From Perkinsus olseni (Eukaryota > Perkinsozoa > Perkinsida > Perkinsidae), in contig JABANP010000068.1 of assembly GCA_013115135.1 (NCBI GenBank), forward strand, positions 1-64,000: a DNA stretch of 64,000 nt. Reading direction: 5' to 3'. Below, piece after piece: positions 1,548 to 59,860 of this stretch. A program made the translations under genes and the position numbers. The notes under the pieces were generated by a model. The model ran no database searches. It was not told the DNA's origin and saw only the letters and a list, made by a program, of their open reading frames with translations. Within the stretch, counting starts at the first letter, position 1, and every line of letters starts with the position of its first letter.

Positions 1548-3002
1548 GGAATTTCATGTCGGTCGATTCACCACACCTACGCTCGAGAGCCCTCCGGGCT
1601 GAGTATGCGGCTAAGCTCCAGGCCAACAAGAAGAACAGTAGGGCGGGCGGCCTTGCTTGCGAGTCTGTGGGTTGTAACGTTCGGGTGTGGGTTGTAACGT
1701 TCGGGCCGCTGTAGGTGAACTTTGAGATCTGGTGGTTTCTCGCTCACCAATATGGTAGCGGACGTCAGAGACCTCCACAGGGACCCGGCCGATCGGGGCG
1801 CGGTGTTCCAAGTAGCGAGCCAATTCAACTGCTTGGAGATGCCGGACATGAACTTGACGCCAGAGGTCGGTGGAGCTGGTCACAGGAGCTTGAGGGAATT
1901 TCACCTAACAGTATCCAGGACGGTATCACCAACTACATAACAGACCCTACCCAGGGTCCCGCTTGTGCCATGGAGTGCGCTCCGGGAACGCTCTACAGGA
2001 ACTATTTTGTAGGCAACCTGCCGACCATGAAACAAACTCGAGGAGCATTGGTTATCAGGTTGATGTGAATGCCGATGGAACTTTAAATGAGGGCGGTGGG
2101 GATGACTCTTTTGAGTGAGTTTCGGCTTGTCTTGCCACCTCTATGATATGTCGGCAGGCCTGGGCAGCGTGCTGATCGCCAACTCGACTGTCTGGCGTAC
2201 GTCGGCAAGGCCCTTCACAATGACAAGGAGAACTATTGGCATCTAAAGAACGGGTAAATCAGGAAAATAATTTGCCCTTTGTGAGTAGGGAAGCATCAGT
2301 TACGTTTTACCGAGTGAGCCTACTTCCCTAAGTCGATTATCACAGCGCCTCCAGTCTCTCTCCTGAGGAGAGTATTGATGAGCCTCAGAGGACAGCTGGC
2401 TGTGGGGGTACAGTGGGACACCGAGGTGAGAACGTCTGTGCTCTTTCATTCATGATTGGCAGGCTTCCTCTGGACCTCCTTTGATGGTCAGGTATCTTCG
2501 GTTGACTCAGGCGAGCAGCGGGTCTGCCAGGTTTACTGTGCAGCAGTGCCTGTAGCCTATGCTCCCGGCACCACCACAGACCAGTGGGAACCTTTCGCTA
2601 GGCTGGTATGCTACATGGCAATTACTCGCTACAGTTATTCAACGTGTGTCGACAGGTCCTGAGGGGATGTTATGAGAGCACTCTGTTGGTTGCTGCCTTG
2701 AGGGCCATTGAGCGGGGCGCGCGGGAGAAGGTGTTTCTCACGCTTGTTGGAGGTGGCGTCTTCGGGAATGATGAACAGTAAGTAGATCCATTCGCTTTGG
2801 GATGCGCTGCTTCTGGCGTCTCTAGAAATCCTCCTTCTCATTCAGATGGATAGTGGACGCTATATGGGAGTCCATCACAAGCCTAGAGTCGAAGTTCAAC
2901 CGTTGCCTTCCCATTGACATCATCATTGTACATCACAGTAGAGTGAGGCCAGCCTTTGAAGGTCTTGCTCGCCGCGCAGCTGATCGTCCTGCTGCCACCT
3001 AG
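1548..3002 (+). CDS. Uncharacterised conserved protein, paralogue A (macrodomain-like C-terminal motif)
   Basis: First of two tandem paralogues. Exons joined by short GT-AG introns give a protein with a start VGRFTTPTL, a core VFQVASQFNCLEMPDM, a block NYITDPTQGPACAMECAPG then LYRNYF, a YW..KNG block, VGVQWDTE, QVYCAAVPVAY, a WEPFARLV segment and a C-terminal VFLTLVGGGVFGND followed by WIVDAI, ending at TAG 3000-3002. I know this arrangement from uncharacterised proteins of bacteria and microbial eukaryotes; no function is established to my knowledge. The LTLVGGGVFGN segment recalls glycine-rich loops of macrodomain/PARG-like folds, which is only an inference. The reading frame breaks near 1588, within about 2355-2370 and at 2383. 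Two of these look like single extra bases. The true N-terminus was not found. It is either a recent pseudogene or a real gene with sequence errors. Confidence 0.6.
1666..1705. repeat. Perfect 20-bp tandem duplication
   Basis: The unit tgtgggttgtaacgttcggg occurs twice head to tail (1666-1685 and 1686-1705), inside the 5' part of paralogue A between its first recognisable exon and the VADVRDLH exon. Paralogue B has no counterpart, so it is probably a recent duplication, possibly inside an intron. Confidence 0.9.
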
Positions 3003-3553
3003 CTGTGGTACTGACTGTTTAGCAAATATTGTTTCCTTCGATTCTTCGAGAGACTCCGCGTTAGTCTCTCAACTTTCGGGTACTCTGGAGGGGATCAGGA
3101 CGTCTCAAGTTGGAATTCAGGGAAATCCGCGGCTCGAACCCTGCTGGCCGCCTTCTGACCGTCCCACGCTCTTGTAGCGATTGCAGGTCGTGTCGCTCTA
3201 CTTCGATCGCTTGGGAAGATGTATAGGGATGCTGCACGGGAAAAGTCTATTTGCTCACCTCACTCATTGTGTGAATCAGGTAGAGTATTTTCACCGTAGA
3301 TGGCGGCTTCTCGCCTTCTAGTCATGCTGTTCGCTTCCAGTGTTTCCTGCAGTGACGACCGGGTCGATGGCCGGCATCTTGGGGCTGGCTCAACATGGTT
3401 CGAGGACACGTTCGGCTTCTCGGAGAGGGCCGGGTACGCAAGGGCTGTCGCCTTCGTCGTGGCATCGGCCTCTCCCTCAGGGGATCCAACATGCATGCGA
3501 CGGTCCATCGCAACGTAGAGCTGCACAAACGTTCAGACGGCGTTCTCGAGTTG

Positions 3554-5015: not shown

Positions 5016-5256
5016 ATGAAGCAGAGGTGGAGCAGATTTTTGTTATCTCGCGAGCGGCTACCGTCGCGGTTTTCCGAAATCGTCGAGACCTACGTCACTC
5101 GCTTTTTTTGAACTCGAATCACCCTTCGACGCTCAACCGGTCCGCTAGTTTTTCTCAGTCTTAAAGACGAATTCATTTTTTAGCCCGGTAACTTTTACAG
5201 CGGCTTTTCATCGATTCTTCCTGAGTGTTGCGACGACAGTTCTTGTCAATGGTTCT

Positions 5257-6380: not shown

Positions 6381-6468
6381 CCAGCCACTGCTGTTTCCGA
6401 TGGTCGTGGCTCTGTTGTATTGTCGGTCGGGAACAGCTTTGCAGCGTGTGACTTCCCTACTGCTCTCA

Positions 6469-12919: not shown

Positions 12920-13837
12920 ATGACTGGCTCCCCCGGCAGGAAACCGAGAGCTATGGCTGGCCGCTACCCAAGGTAAGGCGAAGATGGGTCGGCTGGCGTT
13001 ACTCGTGTCTTGAAGGTTTGAGCTTCGCGATGACCATAAGGCGGAGCTGAAGGAGGCCTTTCGATGTCTTTGATAACGATGGTACTGGCACGATTGATGT
13101 CAGGGACCTGCGCGTGGGAGGAAGTTTGCTGTGTCAGCTGCGTTGGCAGTGATGATTTCAGGTTGCCTTGCGAGCCTTGGGGTTCGAACCTGAGAAGGAC
13201 GAGCTGAAGCGTCTGGTTGGTGGGGCTTGGGGAGTCGCTGAGGGGCTGAGGCAGAAGCTCACTGCCCTTTAGGGAAGCACACGAGGCATCCGGTGCCGAG
13301 GCCCGCTACTGTGGGCGAAGAGTCGACGACTGGTGATAAGGAGCCTGAGAAGCCTCAATCCCGGCACCAACAGCAGAGGGATCCCTCGGCGCAGGCGACC
13401 CCGCAAGATGCTGAGGAGAGTAAGCCTCAGGAGGGGGAAGGGGAGGAGGCGACCGTGCCGGAGCCTACCAGTAAGTCCAGCTCCGATTTGGTGGACGAGT
13501 GGTATGTTTATTGCCGAGGCACACTGGACTTCCATGAGTTCCTCGAGATTATGTTGGAGAAAATGACCGAGAAGGATTCCAAAGATGAGGTGGAGAAGGC
13601 CTATGAGATGTTCCGAGGAGAGTCTGGGAAGGTGTCCTATGATGACCTCAAGGCGGTGGCGGAGGAGCTTGGTAGGATCTGCCGCGGGTGGGCTAGGGAT
13701 CGGGTGGCTTAGGTGACCGCATAGCGGAGGAGGAGCTGCGGGAGATGGTGACAGAGGCGGATCTGGATGGAGATGGGCTGATCAGCGAGGAGGAGTTCAT
13801 CAGAATCATTCTCAAACCCGGTAGTGGACCATTATGA
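12920..13837 (+). CDS. Centrin-like EF-hand protein with a long acidic insert
   Basis: Calcium-binding protein of the centrin/caltractin type, which acts at basal bodies. ATG 12920 opens a basic N-terminus (MTGSPGRKPRAMAGR), as in centrins. EF1 reads ELKEAF[D]VFDNDGTGTID with a canonical loop. EF2 starts LRALGFEPEKDELKRLV, is interrupted by about 70 residues rich in Q, P, E and S (about 13265-13500), and resumes at RGTLDFHEFLEIM. EF3 (AYEMFRGESGKVSYDDL) has lost the usual acidic loop start. EF4 (DLDGDGLISEEEFIRIILK) is canonical. So two calcium sites, 1 and 4, look usable. Four exons joined by GT-AG introns. A one-base excess at about 13059-13061 breaks the frame between EAF and DVF and is probably a sequence error. 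The C-terminus is KPGSGPL. Confidence 0.85.
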
Positions 13838-13999
13838 GCATGAAGGGGCACTGAAGTGTTGGCAACGACCCTTTGGTTGCGTTAATAATGTTATACCAAT
13901 CGGCAAGGGGAGTAGCTAGTCGAAGCTTCGTGGTTTCCGCTGGTTCGCGGGTCTCGGAAGACGAGAGGGAAGGCGGGGTCAGCCTTTTCGGAATTTCCA

Positions 14000-14556
14000 A
14001 TGACAAATGCGGCAGTCAGGCAGTGGTTGGCGTCCGATGGGGACGATGAGGAGGAGGAGCAGGGCACCGAATTGGTGACTATCGAGGGCATCATCGACCG
14101 GGCCGCCAGAGGGTAGCTTCGGGAAAACAGCAGGCGCATGGGTACCCCTCATGCGCAGGCTGAGGCGTTGGTACGAGGAGGATGAGGGAGGGAAGGTCAG
14201 GGCCTCACTCGAAGGGATCTGGACGACTTCCTTGAATTACATAAAGCGCCAAATTGTGCTAGGCAAGATGATTGCTCTACCAACATTAGGTGCTGTGGGG
14301 GAGGGGTCAGGCGTTCGGGCCAGGGGAGATGTCAGGCACCCTCTTCACGAGGGAGGGAGTCCCCTGCATCGCCTTCGCTGAGCAGCTCATCCTCGACTAT
14401 GGTCTCACTTACCAGCCGGGAGAGAGCTACTGTCTCGGACTGGTAGTGAGAGGGGCTGTCAGGGTCGTACGAGAGAAATGGGGAAAGCCCGGTGATGACA
14501 AAAGGCATTCCAATAGACCCAGTATTGTACCGGTTGCCCGGGCAGCTGTGGTATGA
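14000..14556 (+). CDS. CCDC81-type HU-domain protein
   Basis: From ATG 14000 an acidic start (LASDGDDEEEEQG) is spliced over a 46-nt intron to WYEEDEGGKVRASLEGIWTT, then SLNYIKRQIVLGKMIALPTL. A neighbouring frame continues GPGEMSGTLFTREGVPCIAF and AEQLILDYGLTYQPG. An aromatic start, a long helix, GK.(I/V).(I/L)P.LG and a later P.(I/F).(F/L)...(L/F)...YGL match the HU-CCDC81 domain, found in eukaryotic centrosomal or ciliary proteins. The two frames join if one G of the GGGGG run at about 14296-14301 is extra. The real 3' end may lie in a further exon. Confidence 0.6.
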
Positions 14557-14585
14557 TGCAAAATAAAATCTTTAGTAAACTGATG
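14548..14585. repeat. Dispersed direct repeat, copy 1
   Basis: Shares gtggtatgat, then aaaatctttagtaa and ctga with copy 2, about 110 bp downstream. It lies across the 3' end of the HU-domain gene and contains AATAAA, so it may be part of a 3' processing region. Confidence 0.75.
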
Positions 14586-14657
14586 GGTTGAGCATGCCGG
14601 TCTGTGATGATATAAGGAGTGAGGGCCTTATCTGTACCCGATCTGCTGTCCAGAGCC

Positions 14658-14692
14658 GTGGTATGATTAATGAAAATCTTTAGTAATCTGAG
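14658..14692. repeat. Dispersed direct repeat, copy 2
   Basis: Second copy of the element at 14548, with the same gtggtatgat...aaaatctttagtaa..ctga order and a slightly different middle. It sits between the HU-domain gene and the start of the dynein gene region. Confidence 0.75.
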
Positions 14693-14699
14693 ACGAGCG

Positions 14700-15799
14700 C
14701 CGTAGGGAAGGCCATTGAGCGGCTATACGCCCGCGCCTAGTGTTGAACAGATTACTTTCTGTATTAGGTTGGCCCAGCGACCCGTATAGCGTTCGGTGTT
14801 GTGGCGGAGCTCAGCGGTCGAAAGGGTTGGGATACCGTGACAGCGGCCATGGCGGAAGAGGGGTTGAAGCGTGAGCTACTATGCTATGGCCGATGGGAGT
14901 CCACTGCCTTCTTTGCAGCGCGGTCGGGCAGGTATATTCCGCGAAGCAGCTGAAGCGATGTCGATGTACCGTACTGATGTGACTTTGGTGATGGAGAGTA
15001 TTGGCACAGTAGTCTGCCGGAATAAGGTCGTTGGGTGGGACATGCGGGGGAGGGCTGCTCTGGATGAGCAGGCCAGCTGGTAGGTTCCAACCTTTCGTTG
15101 AGTATGGCGCGGAGAGTGCTCGGGGAGGTAGGGGGCCCGTCGGGTTTTATTGGCGATGTGGTGGCTCCCTAGGTTCTGCGTTGAGGTCTCCGATTACACT
15201 AAAGGGCCTGGAACGTTATCACCGGGCTAGACAGAGGTCTGCACGGGGTCTGGAATTGGAAGATGGAAAGGTGGGGAGTCTGCGGCTTGATGGAGCCGCT
15301 CGTCACTTCCACGTGATTGTAGGGAATCGCCTCCCATGGTGGAGCTGGTGGATTGTATTCCGGTGTGATATCACCAAGTAGTGGCAAGGTACGAAAGGTA
15401 TGGTATGAGCATGCGTACGGTCGTAGGTAAAGCAGTGATTCCAGCGCTTGACCTGCGTAGGAGCTTCCGGGCTCGAAGATATACCAACCCGCAAGGCGCG
15501 TCGACTCAGAGGAGTCATCGCACAGAGTAGGGTGGGATGCTGTCAGCGGGAGGATCGTTTGAGTTGGTATCAGGTTCTCGGACATAGTTGACTTGTCGTC
15601 TCGGACACCGGGTGCTCCATCGACGCAAGTTGAAGGCCACAGCATGGACTCCTCTATTGTCGCTAGAATTGGCAGCAACTACACCCCTTTATCGAGGCGC
15701 ATGTAGGAGGAGGGCAGGGCGAGACTGACAGTACTTCACAGCATAGGGTCGCGAGGCCGGCCCGATCCGGTGAAGGCCTGGCTTGGATCCCTGGGGCGG
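14700..15799 (+). other. Undetermined coding stretch upstream of the dynein gene
   Basis: Open pieces such as VVAELSGRKGWDTVTAAMAE with GLKRELLCYGRWESTAFFAA (about 14795-14925) and the ORF 15031-15381 alternate with possible introns. They could be the extreme N-terminal exons of the dynein heavy chain or a separate small gene. I could not connect them with confidence. Confidence 0.25.
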
Positions 15800-18700
15800 C
15801 ATCTATGCTGGGGCAAAGGTTCATGCCGCTGGACGCGCCGTCTATGGATTCCGGTGGAGAGGGGCGGCTGGCTCGTCAGAGACGACCGTTGGTGAGTGTC
15901 TGGGGGCACCCATGACAGGTAATACGCAGGCAGGTATTCAGCAGCCGAAAGCTGTGGAGGGCAATGAAGGACCTTGGGCACAGTGAGGAGAGCCTGCTGG
16001 AAAACTTCAATAGGTAGTACGGCTCCTAGGCTCCTAGTGGGAGCCTTCTGCTCAGGTATGATAGCTATATTCACTCTGCTGCCCTCGAGGCCTGTATCTC
16101 GCCTGTGGACGCTGGGCTGCTCGGTCGTATTGACTTGAAGATTTGTAACGGCTCTTGGTACGGGTTGGTGGGTGAGCATGAGCGAGAGAGCGTCAATAGC
16201 GCCCTCGGAGAGGTGCTGAGGGGGCATGGGAGTGTTGGTATCTATGCTGGTGTGCAGTTGCGGGCCGACGTCATGGCGCAGTACGAAGAGGCTGTGCGTC
16301 GGGCCATAGTGGATTACCTCCTTATGGACCTGCGTATGAGGGAGAGGTGTAGGGTCAGCTTCGTTCCTGTGGTGAGTGGAGATGCTGTCCATGGCGAGCT
16401 CGATAATCGTGCACCCCTCAGGTACGCCCTGCTTGGGGAACGAAGACATACTATGGGGTTGAGGGCACGGTTGGAGGACCGCCTGCTGAGTGGGAAGTGT
16501 CTGTTGCTGGGGGCGTAGGGCAGGCCTGCTGTGATGGTGGGGGACGAGGTCTTCGGCTCAGGTTAGACTCTATGCAAAGCCCTCTGCGCAGTCTTCACGT
16601 TCCCTTCGCCGCCCTGCTGAGCCTCCAAAGGCTGTGGGCCGAGTCTTATGCTGCGGTGACTCTCAGTGATTTAGCAGGTGATGATGAGACCAGGCGATCG
16701 TAGAGTATCGTTTTTGATCGCAGGAAAGGAGCCGCTCCGTGTGGAGACATTCTTGGACTATCAGAGTTCGAGGCGGGACGAGGGTCGCCGAGTACTGGAG
16801 GACGCATGGATGAGCGCAGTGATTGACATCATATCACACGACCGGGCGCTGATGGAATTACTCGAAGGATCGAACGACGAAACGAAGAGGAGGAAGCTGG
16901 GGGTGCTCACGGCCGTACTATCGTCTCACGTTAGACGGTAAGCTCCCTTCGTCTCGGTGCATGGGGATAGGATGGCTCCACTCAGGTTGGTGGAGGCATC
17001 AGCTGAGGAGTATATCAAATACGTGATGCAACATACCTCGCCACTGTGCAATGGAGTGCCGGTGGTGACGCCCGAACGCGCGGCCTGGGAGCTGCATGCG
17101 CGCCAAAGGGACCTCTGTGGCACCGTGGGGTAATAGGGCGCCATTGTCTTCAATCGCAGAGGGTCTCTCGTGCAGAGGGCCGCTGCCGATTCCACGGGCA
17201 TTCCTGGAGTTGAGGCTGATCGCGGAGGGCAGCGCCATCGCTTTCACAACAGAGCTTGACAAAGTGCCGAGAAGGCTGGCGAAGGTGCTCTCTAGTATGG
17301 TCTCCGCTGTGAGGGGCTTGCAGAGGCCTGATGGGAAGCTGCCAATAAAACCGAAGGAGTCCTCAGAGGCGGACTCGGAGGGCGAGAGTACCAACGACCA
17401 GAGCGAAGGTGGGGTCGAGGGACACCGTGCAGTGCGTGACGGCCGATAGAATGAGTAGATGCGCCGATGGTCGAGGAAGTCGGCGAGTTGTGGTATGTTG
17501 ACGAGGAGGAGCCACTAATCATTAAGGGCATGAGAGCCGATCGAAGAGTCCGTGACAGTGTGCGCTGAGAATGCCGAGGGTATCGCGAGGCTTTATGAAG
17601 GGTGAGTGAGCAGAAGGCAGCATTGGTAACGCGCTTCGACCTAAGATACGTTGATCTTCTGACGGAAGAGGACCGGGCTCCTGAGTTCATGGCGAGGGTT
17701 TTGGACACCAATGATCGCGGAGCTTTCGCGAGGAAGGTGGAGTCTGGGGTGAAAGTCTGTCCCTGGTAAGCTTTGCGTTAGATACGGGACCTGACCAGTC
17801 TCGAGGCATCCTTGCTCGACCACTGCCCATCCGTCTTGGACCTTCAGCTCTTCCGTATAGACTCGAGGAGGTTGCATGATTCCTTGGTAGCTGCGGCACG
17901 AGCCGGGAAGGAGGCTATGAGGGAGGCAGTAGTAGAGAGGAACAAGGAGCGCTGCATTCATGTACTTAAGAGGCTGGAGGAGTTGGCGGTGAAGTTGAGG
18001 AAGCCGGCCAGTACCGAGGCTCAGCTTGCTGCATTAGAGCGTACGTTGGTAGGGCTGAAGGAGGAGGGGTTGGAGGCTATGTTTGAGGAATTCCAAGAGT
18101 GCCTGAGATGGCAAGATGCACTCTTCGACCTGGACCTAATTGTGGGCCCCGAGGAGCTGTCGTTGGTGTATGAGACTGCAGTCTGGCTCCGCAAGATCGA
18201 GCGGCTTTGCAGCGAGCGAGAGGATGGGCTTCTGAAGGAGCGCGAGACCTTGGAGGAGAAGTTCAGCGCAACGAGGAGGAAATTCGAGGCTCAGTTGGAG
18301 GGAGTGTGTAATGCCGTTGACCGAGTTAAGGAGCTTGGTACTCCTGCGATTGGCGGAGGAGAATCTCGGGCGTGTTGCCGCGGCTAGGGAGAAAGTAGAT
18401 GGGGCTGTGCAGGAGGCTGCTAGAGTGAATGAAAAGGAAGTGGATCTTGGGTTGCCTGTGAGCCCTTTTGAAAAGCTAAAACAAGTGAGACTCTAGTACA
18501 GCGGCATTGGTCCCTCCTATGTGGGCAATTTGGCAGGCGGTGGCTGGGCTGGAGGCGTGCGAGAAGCTGTGGGGGTTGGCATTTGAGTTCAACAGGGATC
18601 ATCAACAGTGGACCCGAGGGCCACTGTTTTACCAAGAGCCGAAGCTCATCGACGAGGCTTCATCGCGGATGCTCAACTTGGCCAGCCAACTTGAAGAGCT

Positions 18701-21700
18701 CTTCGCTGAGGATACCCCTCCCCGTGGGGTCGTTGCAGCGATGAAGTCGCAGCTGCAGGAGTTCAGGGAGAGCTTGCCTCTGATTCGGGTTGGGGTCCAT
18801 CTCGAAGGTACCCCTATCCAGGTCAGTGGTCTCAGGTCCTCTGCTGGAAAGGACTTGTCGCGAGGCACTGGGAGGAGATATCGGACGTCGTGGGCTTCCA
18901 CATGGAACCAGACCCGACATTTACCTTATGTAGGATACTCGATATGGATGTGGGGAAGCATGTGAGAGGATAAGGCTAGCCGCTAGCCTTTATAGATCGA
19001 TATTTGTGGACTATCGGTTCAGGTGTCTGCTCTCATGGCCATCGGTGAACGTGCTGCTGTAGAGTCGAGAATAGCGGAAGCGCTGAAGGAGTTGAAAGGA
19101 CTAGCTGCTGAGCTCACTCTGAAGGCGACCAGATTCGGCTGGACTTCTCTCTTTGTGAGTTCTGATTTCGGCTGTAGTCTTCAAGTCGTCTGCTCTGTCC
19201 GGGCGAAGTATGTCCTGAGTCGTTCATTCCAAGGTCTTGTCTCCGGACTCCGTCCGAGCTGTGAGAGGTGCCTTAGCGGACCACCTACTGCGGCTGGACG
19301 GCGAAATAGTGAAGGTGGCTGGGGCTACTGAGGTCCCCGGGCTTTCGGAACTAAGAGGTCGTCGTGAGCGGACCCTGGCAGCGGGTGTTATCATTGATAT
19401 GTGGGAGGAGACCGAGAGGGAGTGGAAGGCGCTGCGCTATGTCCTGGACGGCAAAGGACCTGATGCTGGGCTTCCTGGGTTCGAGGAGGAGCGCTTCCAG
19501 TGTTTCGATGAGGTAAGAAGCTAATGAGGTGGAGCATTGTGCGGACCCTCTTGGGAGTGTTCTGTGAAGCTTACAGATCACCAGATTCGGGTTTGAGTGA
19601 ACTGTGAAGTATGGGTCTTTCAGCAGTTGAGCACTCGCGTAGAAATTGCTTTCTGATTCGCTGTTGCATGCTACGCCAAATACGGGGATACTCGCGGTAG
19701 TGTGGACTATGGGTAGGTAGATGAGCGTTGGAGAGAGCTGATGATGAGAGTCCACGACTCACCTCTGACGGTAGAGGATCTACTGAAGAGCGGCGACACT
19801 GTTGCTGATGAGCTCAGGAATGTATCTAGGAAGCTCGAGTTGGTAGGGCTCGGAGTGTTCTCCGTGTGTGGATGTGTGTTTGGCAGTTGTCTCCAGCATT
19901 TGGAGGAGTACATGGAGGCCAAGCGTCATCAGTGCCCACGCCTGTTCTTCCTATATGGGGACTCCGAAATGCTCGGCTGGCTGGGTAGTCGATCGGAGGA
20001 CCCCACTATGGGTCAGCATGCTTGGAAGCTCTTCGGTGGAGCTGAGCGCCTCTGGGTTGACGAGGGTCGGGTACGCGGCATGGAAGCGGCAGGAGGATCT
20101 AAGTTGGAGTTCGAGGAGCGTGTGGAAGATACTGGGGATGTGGCCGATTTCGTAGGATGCTTGCAGAACGCTATGCAGTCTTCGCTACGCTCGGCGGTAC
20201 TGCGGGTTTGCCGAGGGAAGGCTGTTGCCCAACTCGGTGAGGATATCCCCGGAGAACCTCTTCAAGTCGTGGAGTGCTCGAGTGAGATCAATTGGGCAGC
20301 ACACATCGAAGGGCTATTGCGGGCTGAGGAGCTGGGAGGTCTGAAGGGATTACTGTGGACGGCTGGCTGAGGCCCTCGACACTGTAGTGGCTTCGATCCG
20401 GAACGGCACTGCATCCGCGCCAGGGCTGCAGAGGCGCCTGGAGTCGCTAGCCATGATGACCGTGCATCATCATGATGTTGCTGAGAGACTGTGTAGTGCA
20501 GGAGAGGGGCGGGTCTTCTTCTGGCAGTCGCAACTGAAGTACAGCATTGATGAGCAAGGCAAGGTGTGGGTGGAGACACTGGGGTTCAGGCAGCTGTACT
20601 GTTATGAGTACTTCGGAGAACGCGGGAGGATGGTCATGACGCCGACAACACTTAGAGGGTATCACAACATGTTTCTCTCGCTGCGATCTATTCATGGGAC
20701 CATGCTGGGTGGCGGGTCGGGGTCAGGGAAGGGCGCTTTGGTGAGGGGCCTCTCTCGAGCATTAGGGCGGCCATTGTTGGAGCTTGTCTGTAGTGAGCAG
20801 ATGAGTTTCAGCCTCATCGAAAGGGTCCTCAAGGGTATGGCGGGTGGTGGCGCCCTTTGCCTGGTGAGAGATGCAGATAAACTCACTGGGGAGGTAGGCG
20901 GGTCGAAGGCTCTGAGAGAAATGATCGGATCTCTCGCAGGTACTGTCAGGGCTGTTCGACACGCTGCATAGGATATGCTCAGCGGTGAGCTGCGGCGAGT
21001 CCGAGCTGATCAGCAGTGGAAGGAGCCTCCCTCTGATGACAACTTTCGGCTACTTTCTGACAGTGAGTGACCAGCGCAGCTTCGCTCAGTGGCGGAGAAG
21101 ACGTGCCACCTTCTACGACCGTTGTCGAGGGTAGAGCCTGATATGCAGACCGTAGCGGAAATAGGGTTGAGAATGGCTGGTTACTCGCGGCCATGGGAAC
21201 TGAGCAGGAGGCTATCGATAGTACTGCGTGCCACTGAGCACTTGATGGGCTCAGCCGGGGAAGGGAGCTGCTGTGTGGCTCTCCTGAAGAGGATATTGGA
21301 GAGGCTCCCATCGCAGGAAAAAGCTTCCATGGGATTGCAGGGAGAGGTAGTCCGCGCTCTGGAGGATGTCCTGGTGCCGAGGTTGCGTAATGCTGGTGAC
21401 GCTGAGCTTGTGAAGAGCCTCGCCAGGGAGCTCCTCGCTGGCAGCCCGGTTGAGTGCTCCGCAGTAGTGGCCGAACCGGACGTCTCACAGCATAGCTTTA
21501 ATTCTAAGGCGGTGGAGCTCTCGGATATGTTGGCGAACGGTAGGGGGGCCCTCGTAACGGGTCCGCCATGTAGCGGCAAGAGTACGATGATCGCTGCCGC
21601 AGCTGCTGCTTCGAGTGGCCTATCCTCCAGTGCTGTCTTCACGGTCTGTGCCGGGGCCTACTGTGCTCAGGAGATTCTTGGTAGCTCCGTCTGGGGCAGT

Positions 21701-24700
21701 GGTTTGGTCACCTCCCTGCTGCGAGATCATGATGAAGGCCCCGTGTGGATCGTGCTGGACGGGTGCCCAGAGTCTGCGGTTGAGAGCCTCGTCGTGTTGC
21801 TCGATAATGGGAGCCTCATCCTCCAGTCGGGCGATCGAATCAGAGTCAACCCCGGTGCACGGGTCGTATTCGAAGTGCCGGACCTAGGGCTCCTCTCGCC
21901 GGCGCTGGTGGGGAGGTGTGCTATGGTAGCTCTAGGCGATGAGCTCACCTGGGCTATGGTCTTGGATGGGTGGTGTCCTGAAGGAGGGGATACTGACGTT
22001 GTGGTCGAGGTTCGGGAGGGTGTGAGACGCTTCGTGCTAGGGTTGGAGGCAGCGCAGTCAGCAGAGAATGGAGGCATGCTAGACGCAATTCCTTTGCGTC
22101 TTGTTGCCAAGAACAGCTGCAAGCTAGCGTGGTCTCTTTTGGCCGAGGCGAGAAGGTAAATCAGTAGGACTTACCAAGTCAATGAAGCTGGTTCTGTGGC
22201 TCAGTTCAACATCGAATGACGCAGCAGATCAACAGAGGAGCAAGATGCCCCTGGAGGGTTGTGTACAGCGAACCGTCATGTGAGTGGGGACGATGGAAGG
22301 ACTATGACCTGCCTCCCGCCGGGGCCGTCAGGTACGCTGTACTGTGGAGTGTGTGCAGCTTTTTGGGCAGCGCTCTCGAGGACTGGCATCGTGTGGAACA
22401 GGTGAGCGCTGCGGGTCGGACAACCGGTAGTTCGTCTCAGGTTATTCGAAATATTGCTGCAGGGGGACGGTCTGGGTGCTGAGCGGCCCAATTGCCACTT
22501 GGAAATGCCTTCTGAGGGGTAAATGCGGTCAGAGGCTGGTTTTCTGTGTAGAGAAACGGCTCAGGTCGCTCTTTGATTACATCCCCGCGATGGATGCCTC
22601 CGGCTGGTTGGCTTGCCGCTCGCAACTGAATGGTGGATGCAGGCTGCTGCTGCTCCCAACGGCTCCACAGGCTGGAGTCTTGGCGCTGTTGCCTCGCCTT
22701 GCTGCCTCGAGTCGAGCGAATGTGCGTAGTACTGCGAGGCCCTCGAGGGTGCGGCAAATCTGCCATCATCAGTAGCCTCGCGGAGGGGGCATATGAGAGC
22801 CGCTACCGAGACAGGTAAATCACCGCAGTCGGCCGGAGTATCATCTGAGGGAGGGATCCTAGGTTGATGATAATGACCACAGCTGCGACAGGCTCGAATG
22901 ATATACAGAAATGGCTTGGGGACGGATTGGTGAAGCGCACCCGAGGTGGCGCCGCGCCTTCCCGAGGGGAACGTGGATTGGCCGCGAGCAGATACTTTCG
23001 GCTCGGCTGGTGGGGAGGGCACAATGGTGGTGATAGAGGATTTGCATTTGGCTAAGCAGGTGGAGGGAGTGCAGCCTGCGGTGGAGTTCCTGAGGGGGGT
23101 GAGTGATGGAAATCGCCCTTGAGCGACTGGCTGATGCAGGCTATGATGACTCGAGGATGGTTGGATCGATCAGCGTGGCGCAGGGTCAGGGTTGAGGGTA
23201 ACGTTCACTGGGTCGTAAGTATGACCTCGCCACTGGACGGCGGGTGTGCTGGCCTGTCCCAGAGCTTCGGGCCTCATAGTAGGCTCCTGCAGGACGCCAT
23301 CACGGTAGTAATGCTGAGAACACGAGCGTTCTGCCGCTGAATGAAGTCAGTTGCTTCGTTTCTGAGTAGTCCCATTTAGATCGGCCTCCCAAGCGTATCC
23401 GATGCAAGCATGGAAGCCATCTACAGTGAAGTGATATCTCGCGTTTTATCGAGGAGTAGCGTCGCCTCTTGCCCTTTGGCTTCGCCACCCGTCCCTGAGT
23501 CAACCGCCACCCTAAGAGGTTCCACTGGGCTGGAACGTGTCTCTAACGTCATTAAAGTGTACGGCTGGATAGGAGAGAGGGACTGATTTTCGATTTTGCA
23601 GGTATCGGGCGCAGACCGACCTGCTCAGCACGAGTATGTGGCGATATGAGCTTGGTCGCATCCTCGAGGCCTGCTCGCTTGGGGAGGGTCAGGCGTTGAT
23701 CCGCGATATACGGGATGATATCCTCTGTCGTGCGGACGGGCCCACCGACGCCCTTGAGGGCCTCTTGCCGGAGCAAGAAACTATCACGGCTGTCGTGGAT
23801 GGAGAATTGGAAACATTCGGCTCTGCCACTGAGCTCCTGGACCGCCTCAGAGAGAAGCTGGCTGGCACCGCGATGAGTTCCTTTGCCTTGTGGCCCGACA
23901 TGGTGCGGTATGAGTATCGACTCGCTGCCCACACTTTCCCTTGACAGGTCAGGACGATCGCTCGTTTGAGCTCTGTGTGCTCACGAGAGCTAATGGCCAC
24001 GTTATACTGCTGGGCGAGCAGCCTGGCAGCGTTGGCAAGGCTGTTGGCGTCCGGCTTGCCTGCTTCCTTGCAGGAGTGCAGCTACGGGAGTTGGACGCCT
24101 CCGATCAGGCTGAGAATGTGGGCTTAGAAGGAGCAGTAGCCGGGGTGGGCTGGAGGGGGTTCATCGACTCAGAAAGTATCTATCCCTCAGTGCTCGACCG
24201 GGGTGGTAGTGCTGATACGGAACTCGAACGCCCTCACCGATGAGGGCCTTGCAGAGCATCTCGCGCCTGATGAGCAAGGTGAGTGAGGTCTATCAGACAC
24301 GGTGGCTCCGGGTTCTGTAGGGCCGAATGAATCGGTCGACGGGCAACGATCATGGCGCACAGGGCGAGGCTAGGTGGGTCGACCCTGTAACAGAGAGATC
24401 CGATTGAAACCTGTATAGAACGGGCAGCGTCCACGTCGTGCTGTGCGTGGAGGCGGCCGAATCTGGTCCGTTGGAAGCGTGGGCGCGGAGGTTTCCTGAG
24501 ATACTGAAGACCTGTGTGAGGCTGAGGTACTGAACTCTTGCGAGGCGGATACAGTCGAGAATCACCGCTGCTCCTAGGCAAAAGTCGTGGACTGAGGACG
24601 TCCGCCGTATTGTGATAAGGGCAAAGCTTGAAGCGGCCGCTGGGCAGTTCGATGAGCTCAATGTAAACGACCTCATCAGGAGTCACAGTCGCGCATTTGC

Positions 24701-33038: not shown

Positions 33039-33261
33039 TGCAAATACACGGAATAGGAGAGTCCAAGGCCCAAGTATTAGAACGCTGTTTCAACGAGAAA
33101 TTTTGACAACCATTTGACCATATTCTGAGGCCTTGAGTTCTTCGTCGTGTTGTGACGGTGCGGTCACTTGCTCGGTTCGAATCGATTACTCGGGCGAGCG
33201 CGTGTATGATTGCTGATGTTCTCAAGCGTATTGCTGTTTTGATCTTTGCGGCTTGCTTACA

Positions 33262-35746: not shown

Positions 35747-38700
35747 ATGTCCATAGCAGCAGGGCTTCGAGAGATCGTCGATCGGCTTAACGCCCCTCCT
35801 CTGCAGATGGGATTCTCATCACTAGTACAGTTCGATGAGCTGCCGCCGTAATAGTGATACCGTTATCGCCTCGTCTCACTGCGATAAGCCTCGTGAGTAG
35901 GTTCAGCCTCCTATCAATAGTCAACAGGATCCTCACGATACTCGATCCTAAGCATAATGTACTATCAGGCGTTACTGGCGATGGTAACACTGAGTGCCTC
36001 GTTGGTTCCGTGCTCTGCTGGTTTTAGAGTGGTTGTCCCTCGCGTTGTAGTTGCAGCTCTGGCAGGCTGACCAAGTGACGGCTGCGTCCTGATTCAGGTC
36101 GACATGGAGAATGAGCGCGTGGAGGCTACCTACCAGCGTATGGTTGAATTCGTCACCATTCTTGGTTACCCCAGTGATCACAGCCAGTAGGAGACTCTCG
36201 TGGTTGTCGCTCGTGTAGTGATAGGGTGTCAGGGCCTTCAAAGAGTGCTTTGTTAATGGTGACAAGAGAGTGCTGCATCCTTTACTATACTGGCTGTTGG
36301 TCAACCTGCCTGCTCTGAAGGAAAGAGCACATTTAGCGAGGTAACGGCTGTGATAGTGTCAGGGGTCGTGCCATGGGTTCGCCCTCATCGAATCTCCTGT
36401 GGCACAGATTCCTTGTCAATCTTGAAGTTCCTCAAGACTTCATGCAGGACGACAATGTCGCGGAGATGTACGGAAAGTACAAAGAGCTCCAATCAACGTT
36501 CAAGGTGAGCACGACTGGCGAGGAAAATATACCAGAGCATCCATGAACGGCATCAGGCCACACACTCGGCGCTGCAGCAGCAACGGGAAACGGCTACGAT
36601 GCCCAACGAGCTGAAGCGGGACATACAGCAGTTGAGTGTGGAGAAGGATCAGTTGATGATGAAGATAAAAAGTCTCCGCTCTGTCACTCGAAGAGGTGCA
36701 TCATTGCCCATGCTTTCAGCGTTCAAACAAAGGACAGCCGGTGACGCTGATTTCGGCACAATTCTTGACGTCACCTCTAAGCTGCGACATGAGCAAGAGG
36801 CAGAGGTGATAGTATGATGGGTGCACTCCTTCGACTTACGTGTGTTCCCACTTCAGGCACAACTGGCTGATGCGTACAAGCAACAGCGGCGACAGTTGGA
36901 GCGAGTAGAGCATCTGCATCAAACAGCTAGTCAGAGGCTCCAAGCGATGCGCCAGGCGAGAGCGGACGCTGAGGAGAAGCCACAGAGGATGCTCGAGGCA
37001 CTAACAGCAGCAGTAGCCTAGCTCTGCGAAGATGTAGAATAGGTCATACGCGCTGAGGTGGAGAATAATGGTGCCCGACTAGAACAAATGACAGCGGCTC
37101 ATGACGTGCTATGCCGAGAGCTTGACGCTGCCGAGAAGCAACTGAACGTGCCTAATGTGATAGTACGATGGCCTCTGCGTGATGCAACTTAGCTAGATCA
37201 GATCGACGAGGCAACACTGCTGGACGCGGAAGAGAAGCTGGCTGACCTCCATGAGGAGGTTGAGTCGATGGAGAGCAGCCTCAAGAGCCAGCTGCAAGTA
37301 CAAATGCCTTCGTAGGGAGAGATCATCGGGCCGTCTCCTTGCCAGGCGCAGGCTGCACTCGATAGTAAGGGTGGAGGACTGCAGGTGGGGTGCTCATGAT
37401 ACGGGGAACTCTGGGGCCTCGCACGCCCTATATAGGTGTACAGGCATCAAGCACAGCTACTAGCCAAGAAACACGAGGCGTTGTCAAAGAAGGTTGAGGC
37501 AATCGAGACAGAGAGAAACTCAGCTGCGTTCGAGTTGGAGCAGCTCGAGGCGGATTACGAGCAGCGGATGGGGCATCGGTGAGGCGGGGCCCAGTAGGAG
37601 GTTGAACGCTAGAGCGATTGAGGTACCTTCGTCGGGAGGACTTCAAGGATTATGCTGCTACACTGAGAGATAAAACGAAGAAGTTCAAGCTGGCTAAGAG
37701 CGAAGTGCAGAGCTTGAGGTCAGAGGGCGTCTATCCTCAAGAGGACCGAACAGCTACTGAAGGAAAGGTGAATCTCGTTGGCAGGGTTATGGTCCGCCAT
37801 TCCTTGGCCACTGCAGACTGGCGGAAGCTCAGCAGGGTCTGCGGGAAGTCGAGGAAAAGTTCGGGAGTTGTTGGTCATGACGATCTCGAATCACGCCTGA
37901 TGGAGGTAACCAACACCGACTCCTCGACGTTGATGATCGAAGCAGGCCTCGGAGGCGAAGTCAGCCGCAGATGCCAGAAAAAGGCTCTCAAATGGAGGAG
38001 CTGTCCGAGGTGGTGACGAAGATCAACTTCATGCTGCGAGAGAAGAAAAACGAGCTGGCGCCCAGGATCAAGGCGGGCACGTGAGCGGCGAGAACGTGGG
38101 TAGGTTCACGTGCAGGTACTGAGGGCGAAGAGGGAAGAACTAGCAGAAGCTGAGGGGGTGTATCTCACGAAGAGGACAGAGTACTCTGCATGAACCGCGG
38201 CCCGTCCTTTGTGCGACTAATCAGATACGAGGCGGTGGAAGCAGATTTGAACAGGGAAGTGATGCAACGTCGGAGCGTGACGGACAAGTTGCTTGAGGAG
38301 ACAGAATCCTTGCAGAGCCGAGCAGATGAGATTGAACTCAAAATCATAGCGTAAGTCGTTGCTCGGTGAGTCTCAGTTCTTTCTTGGCTTGTCTCGGACG
38401 CAGGACGGAATCGTTGGTCGAGCGAGGAGAGCGAGAATGCCAGTGCCTCGACGGTCGAAGTAGATTCTCCGATGAACACCCGACTCTTAGCGCAGCTTAT
38501 ACGGCCAAGATCCGGGAGCTTGAGAAAGTAGAACCCTCACTGCGTCAGGCATCAGCTCGTCGGTGGACTCTGTGGCTCTCAGACCTGCCAAGCTCTGAAG
38601 CTGCAGCAGAAGGATGTGTCAAACTCGTTCGATTGGAGAGTGCATCAGAAACAATTATTCGAGCGTTTGAATCGTCTTCTCGAGGTCCACTCAAACACGC

Positions 38701-38840
38701 ATATGTTAGTTGAATGTTGATGCCGGGTTCAGGTGAAACTGCGATCGTTGGCATCGGAAAGCGCTGATGGCGAGGCGAGCCTGGGGCGTGTCGAGCACTT
38801 AGCGAAAGGGGTCAACCGACTCGTAATAGAAAGTAACTAG
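35747..38840 (+). CDS. IFT81: Intraflagellar transport protein IFT81
   Basis: IFT-B core protein whose N-terminal calponin-homology-like domain helps bind tubulin cargo. ATG 35747 gives AAGLREIVDRLNAPPLQMGF, then exons LLSIVNRILTILDPKHN, VEATYQRMVEFVTILGYP, and FKECFVNGDKRVLHPLLYWL: the N-terminal domain, block by block like animal IFT81. Coiled coil follows: FLVNLEVPQDFMQDDNVAEM, ELKRDIQQLSVEKDQLMMKI, YRHQAQLLAKKHEALSKKVE, RREDFKDYAATLRDKTKKFK, ILKRTEQLLKE, MEELSEVVTKINFMLREKKN, FSDEHPTLSAAYTAKIRELE and WRVHQKQLFERLNRLLEVHS. Stop TAG 38838-38840. Many very short introns, including 31 nt (36505-36535), 30 nt (37013-37042) and 36 nt (37157-37192). Three one-base excesses break the frame at GGG 37725-37727, GGG 37863-37865 and AAAAA 37978-37982. 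A further break near 38520-38590 is likely. Confidence 0.92.
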
Positions 38841-44321: not shown

Positions 44322-44354
44322 GAGACGTTATTTTTACGAATAGTGAGTTAAATG

Positions 44355-49984: not shown

Positions 49985-50987
49985 ATGGAGAATACGCTCT
50001 GGGCGTTCAGATTCACATCGTGGGGTCCTGGTCCGCCGAAAGCGGGCAGTACTCGCTGGCGACGGGATCTCAGATTGGAGAAGAAGTCCAGAATTTTCGA
50101 GTCGAGCGGGCATCCTGCAACGCAGTTCAAGAAGATGTACGAGCGAGGGGATCTCCCCGTTATGATCAAGCATGGTGAGCCGGAAAGTCGTTAGTGGTTG
50201 AGTGAAATTTTCTTACGATAAGCCTTCTGCCGGAGTCGAACCGACGACCTCCCGGCTTACTAAGCGGGTGCTCTACCAACTAAGCTAAGAAGGCTTGTTA
50301 TTCGCTTATTCGTACCGTATCAGGTGCCAGGAGCTATCTAGAATGGAAAGTGCCAATATCTAAGCTCGACTATCAGCATTTCCTGCCCGTGTTCGTCGAT
50401 GGTATGAGGGAGAAGAGTGAACCGTAAGCTGTAGGACCAGCTCACAGCAAATAGCAGTTTATTTTAGATACCGCTTTGTAGCTCGGGAGGGTTCCCTCAC
50501 GCTCCTCCGAGAAGGAAACGAGGCCAAGATATTATCAGCAGTCCCACAGCTAGTAGCCCCACTCAAGCAGGCCTTGAACACGAGGGACCCGGATACTGTG
50601 GTGAGCCTCTGAGCGTATGAGTTAGATCACGGTTCTCCTACGTTTGAAACCAGGTAAACACCCTGCACGTGTTACAGCTGCTGGCTAAAACATCCCCATT
50701 GGTCGGTGAGTCCTTAGTGCCCTATTATCGGCATCTCCTGCCGATTCTGAATATATTCAAGGCCAAGAAGCGGAATACGCGGGACTTGATGGACTATGCT
50801 CAACGGAAACAGGATTGGAGAAATCTAGGTCCGACCGACATTGTCTTGTCTCAAGCTCTGCGCTAAGACTCTGCCGACAGGTACTCTCATCGAAGAGACA
50901 TTGAACGTGCTGGAGTCCACTGGAGGCGAGGATGCGTTCGTGAATATCAAGTACATGGTGCCCACATACGAGAGCTGTGTCTATTGA
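49985..50987 (+). CDS. PACRG: PACRG (parkin co-regulated gene protein), axonemal inner-junction protein
   Basis: PACRG bridges A and B tubules at the doublet inner junction of cilia. From ATG 49985: [14 protein letters not shown], then [19 protein letters not shown] (compare FRKFYERGDFP), intron 50175-50323, [20 protein letters not shown] with FVDGMREK, intron, [36 protein letters not shown], intron, [40 protein letters not shown], intron, [35 protein letters not shown], stop TGA 50985-50987. The C-terminal [12 protein letters not shown] is nearly invariant in the family. Length close to 230 residues fits. The N-terminal start is the first in-frame ATG and might be extended by an upstream exon. 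The first listed intron hosts an antisense tRNA gene. Confidence 0.93.
50221..50294 (-). tRNA. tRNA-Thr (anticodon AGT), inside a PACRG intron
   Basis: Minus strand. The acceptor GCCTTCT pairs fully with AGAAGGC; the D arm is GCTTAGTTGGTAGAGC; the anticodon loop TTAGTAA contains AGT; the T arm is GTCGG-TTCGACT-CCGGC; the variable loop is AGGTC. The 5' anticodon arm is CCCGC but the 3' arm reads GCCGGG, one C too many (50254-50255 on the plus strand), giving a bulge or a sequence error. The discriminator base is T and there is no encoded CCA. A and B box promoters are intact, so Pol III transcription would run against PACRG. Confidence 0.93.
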
Positions 50988-51275: not shown

Positions 51276-53337
<2,062 letters not shown>

Positions 53338-55470: not shown

Positions 55471-55551
55471 AGCTTAGATACATGTCTGCCACACAGAGCA
55501 GCGACCTCTAGCATCTCCCGCAGTTGATTAAAAGCTTTCTATCTTACTAAA

Positions 55552-56238
55552 ATGGTTCGCATGGCAGCTGATGTGTCCCAGGACTGGAACCCCGTGGTTC
55601 TCAGCAAGGGCCGGCCGAAGAACCCCGCCAGCAGGACTGCTGTGAACGACGCCAGGAGGTGCCACCAACTACCCTACTCGTGCGTCGGGTAGTAACAGTC
55701 TCTCGCCTCAGGACCGGTCAAGGCGTTGAAGTGACGGCCAAGTGGCGCGGTGGACAGAACATGAGCACCAAGGAGGGACTTCCTGCCAACGCCGCCAAGC
55801 TTGATCAGGACAACGCTGTAAGAGAGTTGGGCGATTTACGGTAGGCCTCTTCTCAAATTCGAGAATGTTACCAGAATTGAATGCGACTTCTCTTGAAATT
55901 TAAGCGAGGCAGTCTATTGAGCGCCCGGTTAAATTCCGTGGGAATAATCTCATCGCTGAGCTTGTAGGTGTACAAGCATGCCCACGTCAGTACGGAGTTC
56001 CGACACGCCCTGCAGCAAGCCAGGCTCGCCAAGAAGATGAGCCAGGCTGACCTAGCCAAGGCCATCAACGAGAAGCCTAGCGTCATTAATGAGTACGAGT
56101 ATCGTCCTTCGTAGCACTGGAATGCAACTTTTTTCTCCAGGTACGAGTCCGGTAAGGCAATCCCCTAACGGTGCCGTCGTGAGCAAGCTCAACAGGATTC
56201 TCGGCAGCCGCCTCCCCAGAGCTAAGGCGTCCAACTAA
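55552..56238 (+). CDS. MBF1: Multiprotein bridging factor 1 (MBF1/EDF1)
   Basis: Conserved coactivator and ribosome-collision factor. ATG 55552: VSQDWNPVVLSKGRPKNPAS, then RTAVNDAR; intron; GVEVTAKWRGGQNMSTKEGL, PANAAKLDQDNA; an intron of about 150 nt; VYKHAHVSTEFRHALQQARL, AKKMSQADLAKAINEKPSVI with NEYE (start of the Cro/C1 helix-turn-helix); a short intron; SGKAIP, then in the next frame NGAVVSKLNRILGSRLPRAK with ASN and TAA 56236-56238. The frame change is at ATCCCCTAACGG (56161-56172). Removing one C of CCCC restores the invariant GKAIPN, so it is almost certainly a one-base insertion. Promoter and 5' UTR lie in the spacer after 55125, which holds nothing else but a weak tRNA-like remnant. 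Confidence 0.95.
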
Positions 56239-56472
56239 ACTCAGTTCTAGGTGGTCTGTTAAGCGGAGATGACCTCCTTGTGGGTCCCGGCTCCAAACTG
56301 TACAGTTTCTATCATTATTGAGAAGCAATAAATAACGCTTACGAAGGCTCCCAACATTCACCTCTAAAGGCACCTTTGTACGCTCTTCTCTGATATCCCC
56401 CGCTCTTGCGTTGCTGCACAGTACCACCGTTAATAGTCATACCAGCTCACCACGGCAGTTGCATGAGGTTTG

Positions 56473-57239: not shown

Positions 57240-57412
57240 GTCGAACCCCGGCCGAAATGGAACGACATTGATGCTAACTCGCCCATTTCGTATCAATTAG
57301 CAGCTTCCTGTCTCACTACCAGCGTTGAGTTAATAGGATGATGGGTCGTCTTATTGCGGCCCCCGCAGCTCGGGATTAACACCAGCCAACTCTAACAAAT
57401 CTTCCATCGAAA

Positions 57413-59860
57413 TCATGAAACGTCAACAGCATCAGAAACGTCAATTCGCAAGTCAATGAGGAAGAGGCCGGCGGCCACCGTCTCGCTCACGACCGGCATG
57501 CCCATCTGCAGCTGCAAGACCATCCCGACTTCCGAGTGGCTTCGACCGTTCCCTGCCCGCGGCGTCCCCACCTCTGCCTTGCTCAGCTCTCGCAGCGTCT
57601 CGAGAGGGAGTGCTTCCAGATTCTTGACACCAGAGCTGAGCAGCGCTCCGAGAACTTGCCGACAGCCGGCCTTGTCGAGATGGACCAAACCTCCTAGCAG
57701 CGTCCTAGGCAGCACGCCCGTCGCCATAGCAACAGCATGAGCTGCAATTGCGAGTGTTTCGCCGCGTGCACGAGTCGACCTATGATTCCTCACGACCTCC
57801 ATAACGCTGCTCACCAGCCCCTTCCAAAGTGGGACAGCACGGTGAGCCAAATCCAGCCGTACGAGGGCATTGAGGCAAGTGTCCAAATTGCTGTATCGAA
57901 TTACCCCAGCTGACGCGCTCCCAATTCGCCTGACCCAGGAGGTCCATCAGCGCTTTCTGCGGTATGAAGTCCAGAAGCGCCAGAGCATTGAGCAACGCCG
58001 TCAATGGCCTCGCGTCGCCGCTCACCGGGGCCATCTTCGACACTAGCAACGGCACGGCAGCACTGGCGAAGTCGATTGCCTTGCCGTGGTTGCATCTTGC
58101 CAGGCCCAGAAGGAACATAGCCAGCTGACCGCTCGACAACCCTTCCTTCATCAGTCTGGGCTCGCCTTGCAGCATCTCCACCACCGTCGAAAGGAACTCC
58201 TCGGCTCTGGATCTCTGGCTGTCTGTGGGCCGCCCTTCCGTCAGGTAAGAGGCGATGTCTGGTGAGAGCATAGCGATGAGCTGAGTGTGCTTGGTGAGCG
58301 CTCCCATGCGACTCGAGAGCGTTCCAATCACCACCGATTCAAGGAACTCCCAATCATAGTACCCAACCTTGGCCATGGCATGGAGCCCGTAGACAGCATC
58401 TTTAGCAGACTTACTTCCGGCACTCGGCCAAGCGTTTCGACCCACTCGAACACAGTACGCGCCATCGAGAGAGGCATCTCGAGGTCGGCGAAGGCGCCCC
58501 AGACCAAACAGATGGCTTGACCGTCGAACTCGGCGGCTCGAGCCGATACCATGGCTGCCAGGCGGAGCCACGAACTCCACCGAGGGCCGACCGCCAGCCT
58601 TGACAATACCGTGACAGAAAAGAGAAACGTCCTGCGGTGTCCAGCTGGCGATATCGGTAGACTGTCCCTCCGCCCAGAGGAGGACGGCCTCTACAAAATC
58701 TGCATCGGTGAAGTTCAACTTAACCATGGCATTGAGTGACTGTGTCGCCACTCGACTCAGACTGGAACCATCTGTCCGACGAAGAAGTTCCGTAACCCGC
58801 TTGCTGAGCCTCTTCAGGACAGCTCTGTCATTAATTTTGAGGCGCGCGAAGGCATTCAAGACTATCGCGCAATCAACTCCGGTAAAGTCTGCAGATTTGG
58901 CCATGATATTCGGCACCAGGAATCGCAGGACAGCATCGCCCTCCCTGATGCCTGCTTTAGCATATGCGTTGCACAGCATGGCGAGGCCCTGAGGCGTGAA
59001 GTCCTCGGACACTTCGACACTCCTTCGAGCAAGCTCGGCCATCAGTTGGCGGGTCTCTGGGCTACTCCTCAGCCTTAGCCAGGGCCCCAGCGGCCATAGC
59101 ACAGTCCTGTGCGTTACCATACGACATACCTCCAGAATTTCGACTGGCTGCTAACAAGCGCCCCATGCTACTGCCGCCACCGTTCCTGAGACGGTACAGT
59201 AGATCCCCCTTCGGGTGGGCCTTTCTCTTACTTGGCGACCGCGTGAAGACACCTGGCCACATCTCTAGCGTCTATGGCCCGACTGCCCTCTGAAGCCCTT
59301 CCGACCATCATCTTCATGGCGACAGCTGATAGGACCTCCTTCCTCACGGGAGTCCTCTACACCGGGTAGAGCCGAGAGGATGTTCGCAGTGAGACCCAGG
59401 TGGGTTGGGGTCTGAACCACACCAATCACGCGTGCCTCACCACGGCCCCGCGCCCGCTGTGGGGCATCTATGGGAAGACGAATCATTCCGAACTGTTGTC
59501 TCACCAGAACAGATCTCACGTCCCCCTTGCCTCTTGGGTTATTACCATTTCATCCAATCGGTCTCGAAGCTCCGCTACAGCCGCACTCCAAAAGTTTTCT
59601 TTCCCTCGACACCCTCCCCCAGCAGCACCCAGCTTATTAAGAGTGAAAACCAAGTCATCTGTACGGAGACGTCGGAGATGCTCTAGCAGCGTATCCAGCT
59701 TCTGGGCCCCGCGGCCCAGCCTGCGATAGGCCGACTCCAATACCGAAATAGTGGAAGCCGACCCTGCCATTCGGAGGTAACGAGCAAGCTTCAAGCTATC
59801 ATCGTGCACGCCAGCAATACTAGTATTGAGCACGAGGCAACCCAAAACCCTTGGTGGCAT
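57413..59860 (-). CDS. Helical-repeat protein of the HPR/OPR type, probable organellar RNA factor
   Basis: Minus strand, possible ATG at 59858-59860: SLKLARYLRMAGSASTISVL, LDTLLEHLRRLRTDDLVFTL, AAVAELRDRLDEM; exons follow: VRKEVLSAVAMKMMVGRASE, DARDVARCLHAVAK, NAQDCAMAAGALAKAEE, then SPETRQLMAELARRSVEVSE, FTPQGLAMLCNAYAKAGIRE, FTGVDCAIVLNAFARLKIND, VATQSLNAMVKLNFTDADFV, WTPQDVSLFCHGIVKAGGRP, SAKDAVYGLHAMAKVGYYDW, SSGQLAMFLLGLARCNHGKA and PLTALLNALALLDFIPQKAL. Tandem helix pairs of about 37 residues with a (D/P)....(L/M)..A.A+.. pattern match the heptatricopeptide (HPR) and octotricopeptide families, which in apicomplexans act in mitochondrial rRNA handling. No RAP domain was seen. The frame breaks by one base at 59064 (GAG-T-AGC) and at two places around 58400-58570. 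The C-terminal part (57413-57886) is in another frame. Confidence 0.7.

What the first reader, a model, noticed from the sequence alone, without database searches (positions are those of the whole stretch)
1588..59064. Recurrent single extra bases break the frame of conserved genes and also one tRNA
In at least eight conserved genes, deleting one base restores family-conserved sequence. Sites: paralogue A 1588 and 2383; paralogue B about 4440 and 4919; centrin-like 13059-13061; HU protein about 14296-14301; IFT81 37725-37727, 37863-37865 and 37978-37982; Rpt2 about 52822-52826; MBF1 CCCC near 56162-56165; helical-repeat protein 59064. Most extra bases lengthen a homopolymer (CCCC, GGGGG, AAAAA, TTT). 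No consistent codon precedes the shift. Perkinsus mitochondrial genes are known to use programmed +1/+2 frameshifts, so recoding deserves a thought, but here the tRNA-Thr gene also carries one extra C (50254-50255) in its anticodon stem. Translation cannot explain that, so insertion errors of the read technology or assembly are the best reading. A few breaks (paralogue A about 2355-2370, helical-repeat protein about 58400) look like deletions or double changes.
Basis: partly seen in the sequence, partly recalled or inferred. Interest (0 to 1): 0.75.

Follow-up and report, generated by a model that had tools for sequence, protein, structure and literature searches.

The report
Extra bases from imperfect genome assembly
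Essential genes in this stretch of a Perkinsus (shellfish parasite) genome look broken by stray extra letters, but intact versions of the same genes and of the same tRNA elsewhere indicate that these are almost certainly sequencing or assembly errors, not a new way of reading genes.

Summary
The frame changes are real in this sequence file but almost certainly not in the organism. The window is DNA of a Perkinsus close to P. olseni. Frame-aware alignment to P. olseni protein models finds 19 frame changes in one long model (centrin-like, HU, dynein-like; 4088 residues placed) and 3 in IFT81. PDB relatives support one each in Rpt2 and MBF1. 21 of these 24 are of the one-extra-base class; contexts are mixed. 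The HU site is an intron; the paralogue sites are unresolved; the helical-repeat protein was not tested.

Two internal controls point to error. The tRNA-Thr extra base is absent from all 52 other copies matched in the assembly. A dynein gene held twice, at 95-96% DNA identity, has 9 frame changes in one copy and 0 in the other; substitutions between the copies fall 9/2/226 on codon positions 1/2/3, so both encode a constrained protein. Mitochondrial-Perkinsus-type and Euplotes-type frameshifting were tested and not met. The insertion-heavy profile resembles PacBio reads (PMC7671305). Which technology made this assembly is not known here; no reads, RNA-seq or peptides could be examined.

The parts
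12920..29961 (+). Gene region matching one P. olseni model, P0001/FOL46_007748 (centrin-like EF-hand, HU-like, dynein-heavy-chain-like parts), with 77 introns called (median 49 bases) and 19 frame changes
   Evidence: 3664 of 4088 placed residues identical; 15 '+1', 1 '-2', 1 '-1', 2 '+2'
13059..13062 (+). Frame change in the centrin-like part (one-extra-base class)
14290..14335 (+).
16509..29414 (+). 18 further frame changes, placed at 16509, 17539, 18343, 19905, 20344, 21096, 22462, 22713, 23972, 24248, 25181, 25365, 27663, 29051, 29255, 29295, 29395, 29414; the last five lie within 364 bases
36047..38705 (+). IFT81 gene; the apparent in-frame stops seen in a plain translation lie in introns
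   Evidence: 591 of 614 residues identical to P. olseni FOZ62_010227 (P0031)
37726..37979 (+). Three frame changes in IFT81 (37726/37729, 37863, 37979), all one-extra-base class
   Evidence: same three sites with P. olseni, P. chesapeaki and P. marinus references
50220..50295 (-). tRNA-Thr (anticodon agt) with one extra C in the anticodon stem (50254-50255)
52823..52826 (-). Frame change in Rpt2 (26S proteasome ATPase subunit), one-extra-base class
   Evidence: 8amz_I, E 5e-38
56162..56166 (+). Frame change in MBF1 (CCCCT followed by AA; an in-frame TAA follows CCC), one-extra-base class
   Evidence: (7nrd_Sh, E 1.4e-12)

Best explanation
The extra bases are residual single-base insertion errors of the reads or of the consensus in this assembly. 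The genes in the organism are intact. A stray base, often next to or within a short run, was kept in the consensus at places. The density differs between contigs and along them, probably with read depth (inferred; depth was not available). Shown: the frame changes, their bias towards one extra base, and their absence from second copies and from close relatives' protein models. Inferred: the technology (PacBio-like) and the role of depth.
For: (1) tRNA-Thr: the extra base is in the window copy only; 51 of 52 other copies are one base shorter and 1 is two shorter; translation cannot explain it. (2) Dynein pair, C535 (L075) against C520 (L076): 9 frame changes against 0 with P0040, 8 against 0 with P0035; in aligned coding DNA 8 extra stretches in C535 (seven of one base, one of two) against 0 in C520 (one-sided sign test 0.004); substitutions 9/2/226 by codon position, so the broken-looking copy is not a decayed pseudogene. 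(3) IFT81 is 96% identical to P. olseni (591 of 614) and continuous in three Perkinsus models. (4) Of 24 changes in four genes 21 are one-extra-base class (two-sided binomial 2.8e-4). (5) 0 internal stops in 4642 placed codons, which fits few substitution errors and living genes. (6) 13 of 18 '+1' sites lie near a run of 3 or more, against 35% of placed codon positions (the extra base itself lengthens runs, so this is biased upward). (7) PacBio raw reads: insertions about 8%, deletions 3%, substitutions 1-2% (PMC7671305, abstract and passages). PacBio and canu v1.9 were used for four Perkinsus taxa (PMC9550989, passages), but it is not known that this assembly is one of them.
Against: The error density is not uniform. 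At the window's rate about 5 extra bases would be expected in the other 52 tRNA-Thr copies and none was seen, and C520 has none. This needs locally poor consensus, which could not be checked. PacBio consensus normally removes most random insertions (recalled). 5 of 18 '+1' sites have no run of 3. The P. olseni, P. chesapeaki and P. marinus references are gene models; their DNA was not seen. The aligner penalises stops, so the zero-stop count is not free of it.
Confidence: 0.94

Rival explanations
1. Programmed or context-free +1 ribosomal frameshifting in the nuclear genes of this Perkinsus.
For: Strong bias to one extra base (21 of 24); the genus uses +1/+2 frameshifts in its mitochondria (PMC9550989, section 7); the MBF1 site contains CCCCT at a proline and is followed by an in-frame TAA.
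Against: Same gene, same genome: 9 against 0. None of the 42 in-frame AGGY sites in the placed codons is at a frame change, and 40 of 42 align to Arg in the reference. At 18 '+1' sites no stop stands in the four old-frame triplets from the placed site. IFT81 is continuous in three Perkinsus models. A tRNA gene is affected too.
Confidence: 0.03
2. Real insertions: the affected copies are decaying pseudogenes or one bad allele.
For: The genome holds diverged second copies of at least one gene, so redundancy exists.
Against: Substitutions between the dynein copies fall 9/2/226 by codon position. 0 stops in 4642 placed codons and high protein identity in the window genes. IFT81 has no second copy found in the assembly. 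Decay would also give deletions and nonsense changes.
Confidence: 0.02
3. The frame changes are unrecognised short introns.
For: True for the HU site; possible for paralogues A and B near 2364 and 4430.
Against: At the '+1' sites both sides align without room for an intron; introns called here are 39-325 bases.
Confidence: 0.01

Closest known systems
Residual insertion errors in long-read (PacBio CLR) assemblies
   Same: Insertion-dominated single-base changes, often in short runs, breaking frames of conserved genes and RNA genes alike; absent from second copies (error profile PMC7671305).
   Different: Technology and read depth of this assembly are unknown here; density varies more than a uniform error rate would give.
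Perkinsus mitochondrial frameshifts (AGGY, TMGGY, CCCCT; PMC9550989)
   Same: Same genus; +1 direction; the MBF1 site happens to contain CCCCT.
   Different: Not at Gly/Pro motifs: AGGY is read as ordinary Arg in 40 of 42 cases with no shift; not shared between relatives or copies; the mitochondrial sites are conserved across four species (section 7).
Euplotes nuclear frameshifting at internal stop codons (PMC10235951)
   Same: Many nuclear genes, mostly +1.
   Different: In Euplotes the shift is at a stop codon (abstract); here 1 of 20 sites (MBF1) has one at the shift.

Membership tests
Long-read assembly insertion error | Extra bases absent from other copies of the same sequence in the same genome | tested here: met
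   tRNA-Thr 0 of 52 other matched copies; dynein copy C520 0 frame changes against 9 in C535
Long-read assembly insertion error | Affects non-coding RNA genes and introns as well as coding sequence | tested here: met
   tRNA-Thr; 13 extra stretches in non-coding DNA of C535 against 5 in C520, though natural indels are mixed in
Long-read assembly insertion error | Insertions outnumber deletions; substitutions rare | tested here: met
   21 of 24 frame changes one-extra-base class; 0 internal stops in 4642 placed codons
Long-read assembly insertion error | Extra bases missing from accurate short reads | not testable with these tools
   no reads held
Perkinsus mitochondrial-type frameshift code | Shift at AGGY/TMGGY (Gly) or CCCCT (Pro) | tested here: not met
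   0 of 42 in-frame AGGY and 0 of 1 in-frame CCCCT in the long model and IFT81 are at a frame change; TMGGY not counted; MBF1 contains CCCCT
Perkinsus mitochondrial-type frameshift code | Sites conserved between species | tested here: not met
   IFT81 models of P. olseni, P. chesapeaki and P. marinus are continuous across the three sites; their DNA was not seen
Euplotes-type frameshifting | Stop codon at the shift site | tested here: not met
   0 of 18 '+1' sites in the long model and IFT81; Rpt2 no, MBF1 yes
Programmed frameshifting in general | Peptides or ribosome footprints across the site | not testable with these tools
   no proteomic or ribosome-profiling data held

The most novel reading that the evidence does not exclude
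This Perkinsus tolerates +1 insertions anywhere in nuclear mRNAs through an unusually permissive frame-keeping system, so that frame-breaking insertions drift in one gene copy and not in another, as neutral drift of frameshift sites has been argued for Euplotes; the tRNA-Thr with an enlarged anticodon stem would be a variant tRNA taking part.
Probability: 0.02. Interest if true: 0.95.

Novelty: not a real feature. Interest (0 to 1): 0.08.

Why it matters
If taken at face value these sites would suggest a nuclear non-triplet code in Perkinsus, which would be a major claim given the real frameshifts of its mitochondria. The controls here show why that claim should not be made from this assembly. 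Gene models, intron counts and pseudogene calls from such contigs should be treated with care.

Tried and rejected
Considered and rejected: mitochondrial-type code, Euplotes-type shift, pseudogene decay, and unrecognised introns (true for HU only). Dead ends: an SSU rRNA search of the genome did not complete. A scan of 20 dynein loci used mainly P0036, a reference that behaved as a chimera; its many weak calls were set aside as noise after seeing them. A second scan of 14 of the 22 dynein loci (L053-L074) with other references gave 10 distinct strong calls (10 or more similar residues of 15 on both sides) in 6 of 12 contigs: seven '+1', two '-2', one '+2'; references there are distant (most alignments 36-62% identical), so these are only suggestive. 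C520 (72% identical) had none in that scan. One weak point in it against a simple picture: C168, a 261 kb contig, shows one '+1', one '+2' and one '-2'. Paralogue A/B comparison stayed undecided. No allelic copy of the IFT81 region was found.

Full report
Origin. The best protein match of a 362-residue open frame is P. olseni FOL46_007748, 90% identical. IFT81 aligns to P. olseni FOZ62_010227 with 591 of 614 residues identical, against 501 of 686 placed residues for P. chesapeaki and 530 of 699 for P. marinus. So the source is P. olseni or a very close Perkinsus; the isolate could not be named.

Observation. P0001 is a 4097-residue P. olseni model that joins centrin-like, HU and dynein-like parts. 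It places 4088 residues, 3664 identical, with 77 introns (median 49 bases) and 19 frame changes: 15 '+1', one '-2', one '-1', two '+2'. The count is the same at frameshift penalties 8 and 12 and loses one '+1' at 18. IFT81 has three '+1' changes with each of three Perkinsus references. Rpt2 and MBF1 have one each, supported by PDB relatives aligned to the two pieces. Together 21 of 24 are in the one-extra-base class (binomial p 2.8e-4). Paralogues A and B are undecided; the helical-repeat protein was not tested.

Control 1, tRNA. The window's tRNA-Thr has an extra C in the anticodon stem. The genome search returned 52 other copies in 29 contigs. 51 are one base shorter than the window copy over the same span and one is two bases shorter. 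In the alignments read (19 loci and their neighbours) the missing base is that C; the copy that is two shorter also lacks another base. Only 40 of 63 first-look candidates were scored, so the count is a lower bound. At the window's rate about 5 extra bases would be expected in those 52 copies and none was found, so the error density is uneven.

Control 2, a gene held twice. Contigs C535 (31 kb) and C520 (32 kb) hold the same dynein heavy chain gene at 95.1-96.0% DNA identity. With the Amoebophrya reference P0040, C535 shows 9 frame changes (eight '+1', one '+2') in 2131 placed residues and C520 none in 2149; with P0035, 8 and 0. In aligned coding DNA C535 has 8 extra stretches (seven of one base, one of two) and C520 none; in non-coding DNA 13 and 5. 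Substitutions fall 9, 2 and 226 on codon positions 1, 2 and 3. Both copies therefore encode a strongly conserved protein, and the frame breaks in one of them are neither shared recoding signals nor signs of decay.

Context. The 18 '+1' sites of the long model and IFT81 begin with varied triplets and none has a stop within the four old-frame triplets shown. 42 in-frame AGGY sites exist in the placed codons; none is at a frame change and 40 align to Arg. The MBF1 site is the one exception that resembles both known codes: it contains CCCCT and an in-frame TAA. 13 of 18 sites lie near a run of at least 3, against 35% of placed codon positions, a comparison biased upward because the extra base itself lengthens runs. 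No stop codon is placed in 4642 codons, with the caveat that the aligner penalises stops.

Genome-wide hint. With distant dynein references, 10 distinct strong frame changes were called in 6 of 12 further contigs (seven '+1', two '-2', one '+2'). This suggests that the problem is not confined to C645, but the references are too distant for firm counts.

Mechanism. The most likely cause is residual insertion error in a long-read consensus. PacBio raw reads carry about 8% insertions, 3% deletions and 1-2% substitutions (PMC7671305, abstract and passages). PacBio RSII/Sequel with canu v1.9 was used for four Perkinsus taxa (PMC9550989, passages). That this assembly is one of those, and that depth explains the uneven density, is inference. 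I searched for reports of nuclear programmed frameshifting in Perkinsus and saw in those listings only mitochondrial cases by title or abstract; these searches cover an open-access library and do not prove absence.

Verdict. Not a biological feature, confidence 0.94.

Noticed in passing
L075 (C535:13500-22499) and L076 (C520:13500-22499): Two copies of a dynein heavy chain gene at about 95% DNA identity; third codon positions differ at 226 sites in 6267 coding bases (about 10.8% of third positions), more than the aligned non-coding bases (130 of 2374, 5.5%). Haplotypes or duplicates; the low intron divergence is unexplained.
   Followed up: partly
12920-29961: The P. olseni model FOL46_007748 joins centrin-like, HU-like and dynein-like parts in one 4097-residue protein and the window is colinear with it; this may be a true fusion or a gene-prediction merger.
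   Followed up: no
33217-34983: A 588-residue open frame with RRM_2 and RRM_1 matches (Mei2-like), the longest open frame listed in the window.
   Followed up: no
31586-32131 and 32327-32926: AP2-domain match (33.1 bits, just under the Pfam cut-off of 33.3) and an Ercc1/Rad10 match.
   Followed up: no
contigs C14, C431, C778, C823: Short-spaced arrays of near-identical tRNA genes (about 166-183 bases apart on C778, 181 on C14), with many tRNA-Thr copies.
   Followed up: no
1740-2885 and 3791-4897: Tandem paralogues A and B of unknown family; both change frame at the matching place (about 2364 and 4430), possibly a shared short intron.
   Followed up: partly
29051-29414: Five of the 19 frame changes of the long gene lie within 364 bases, as a locally poor consensus would give.
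   Followed up: no
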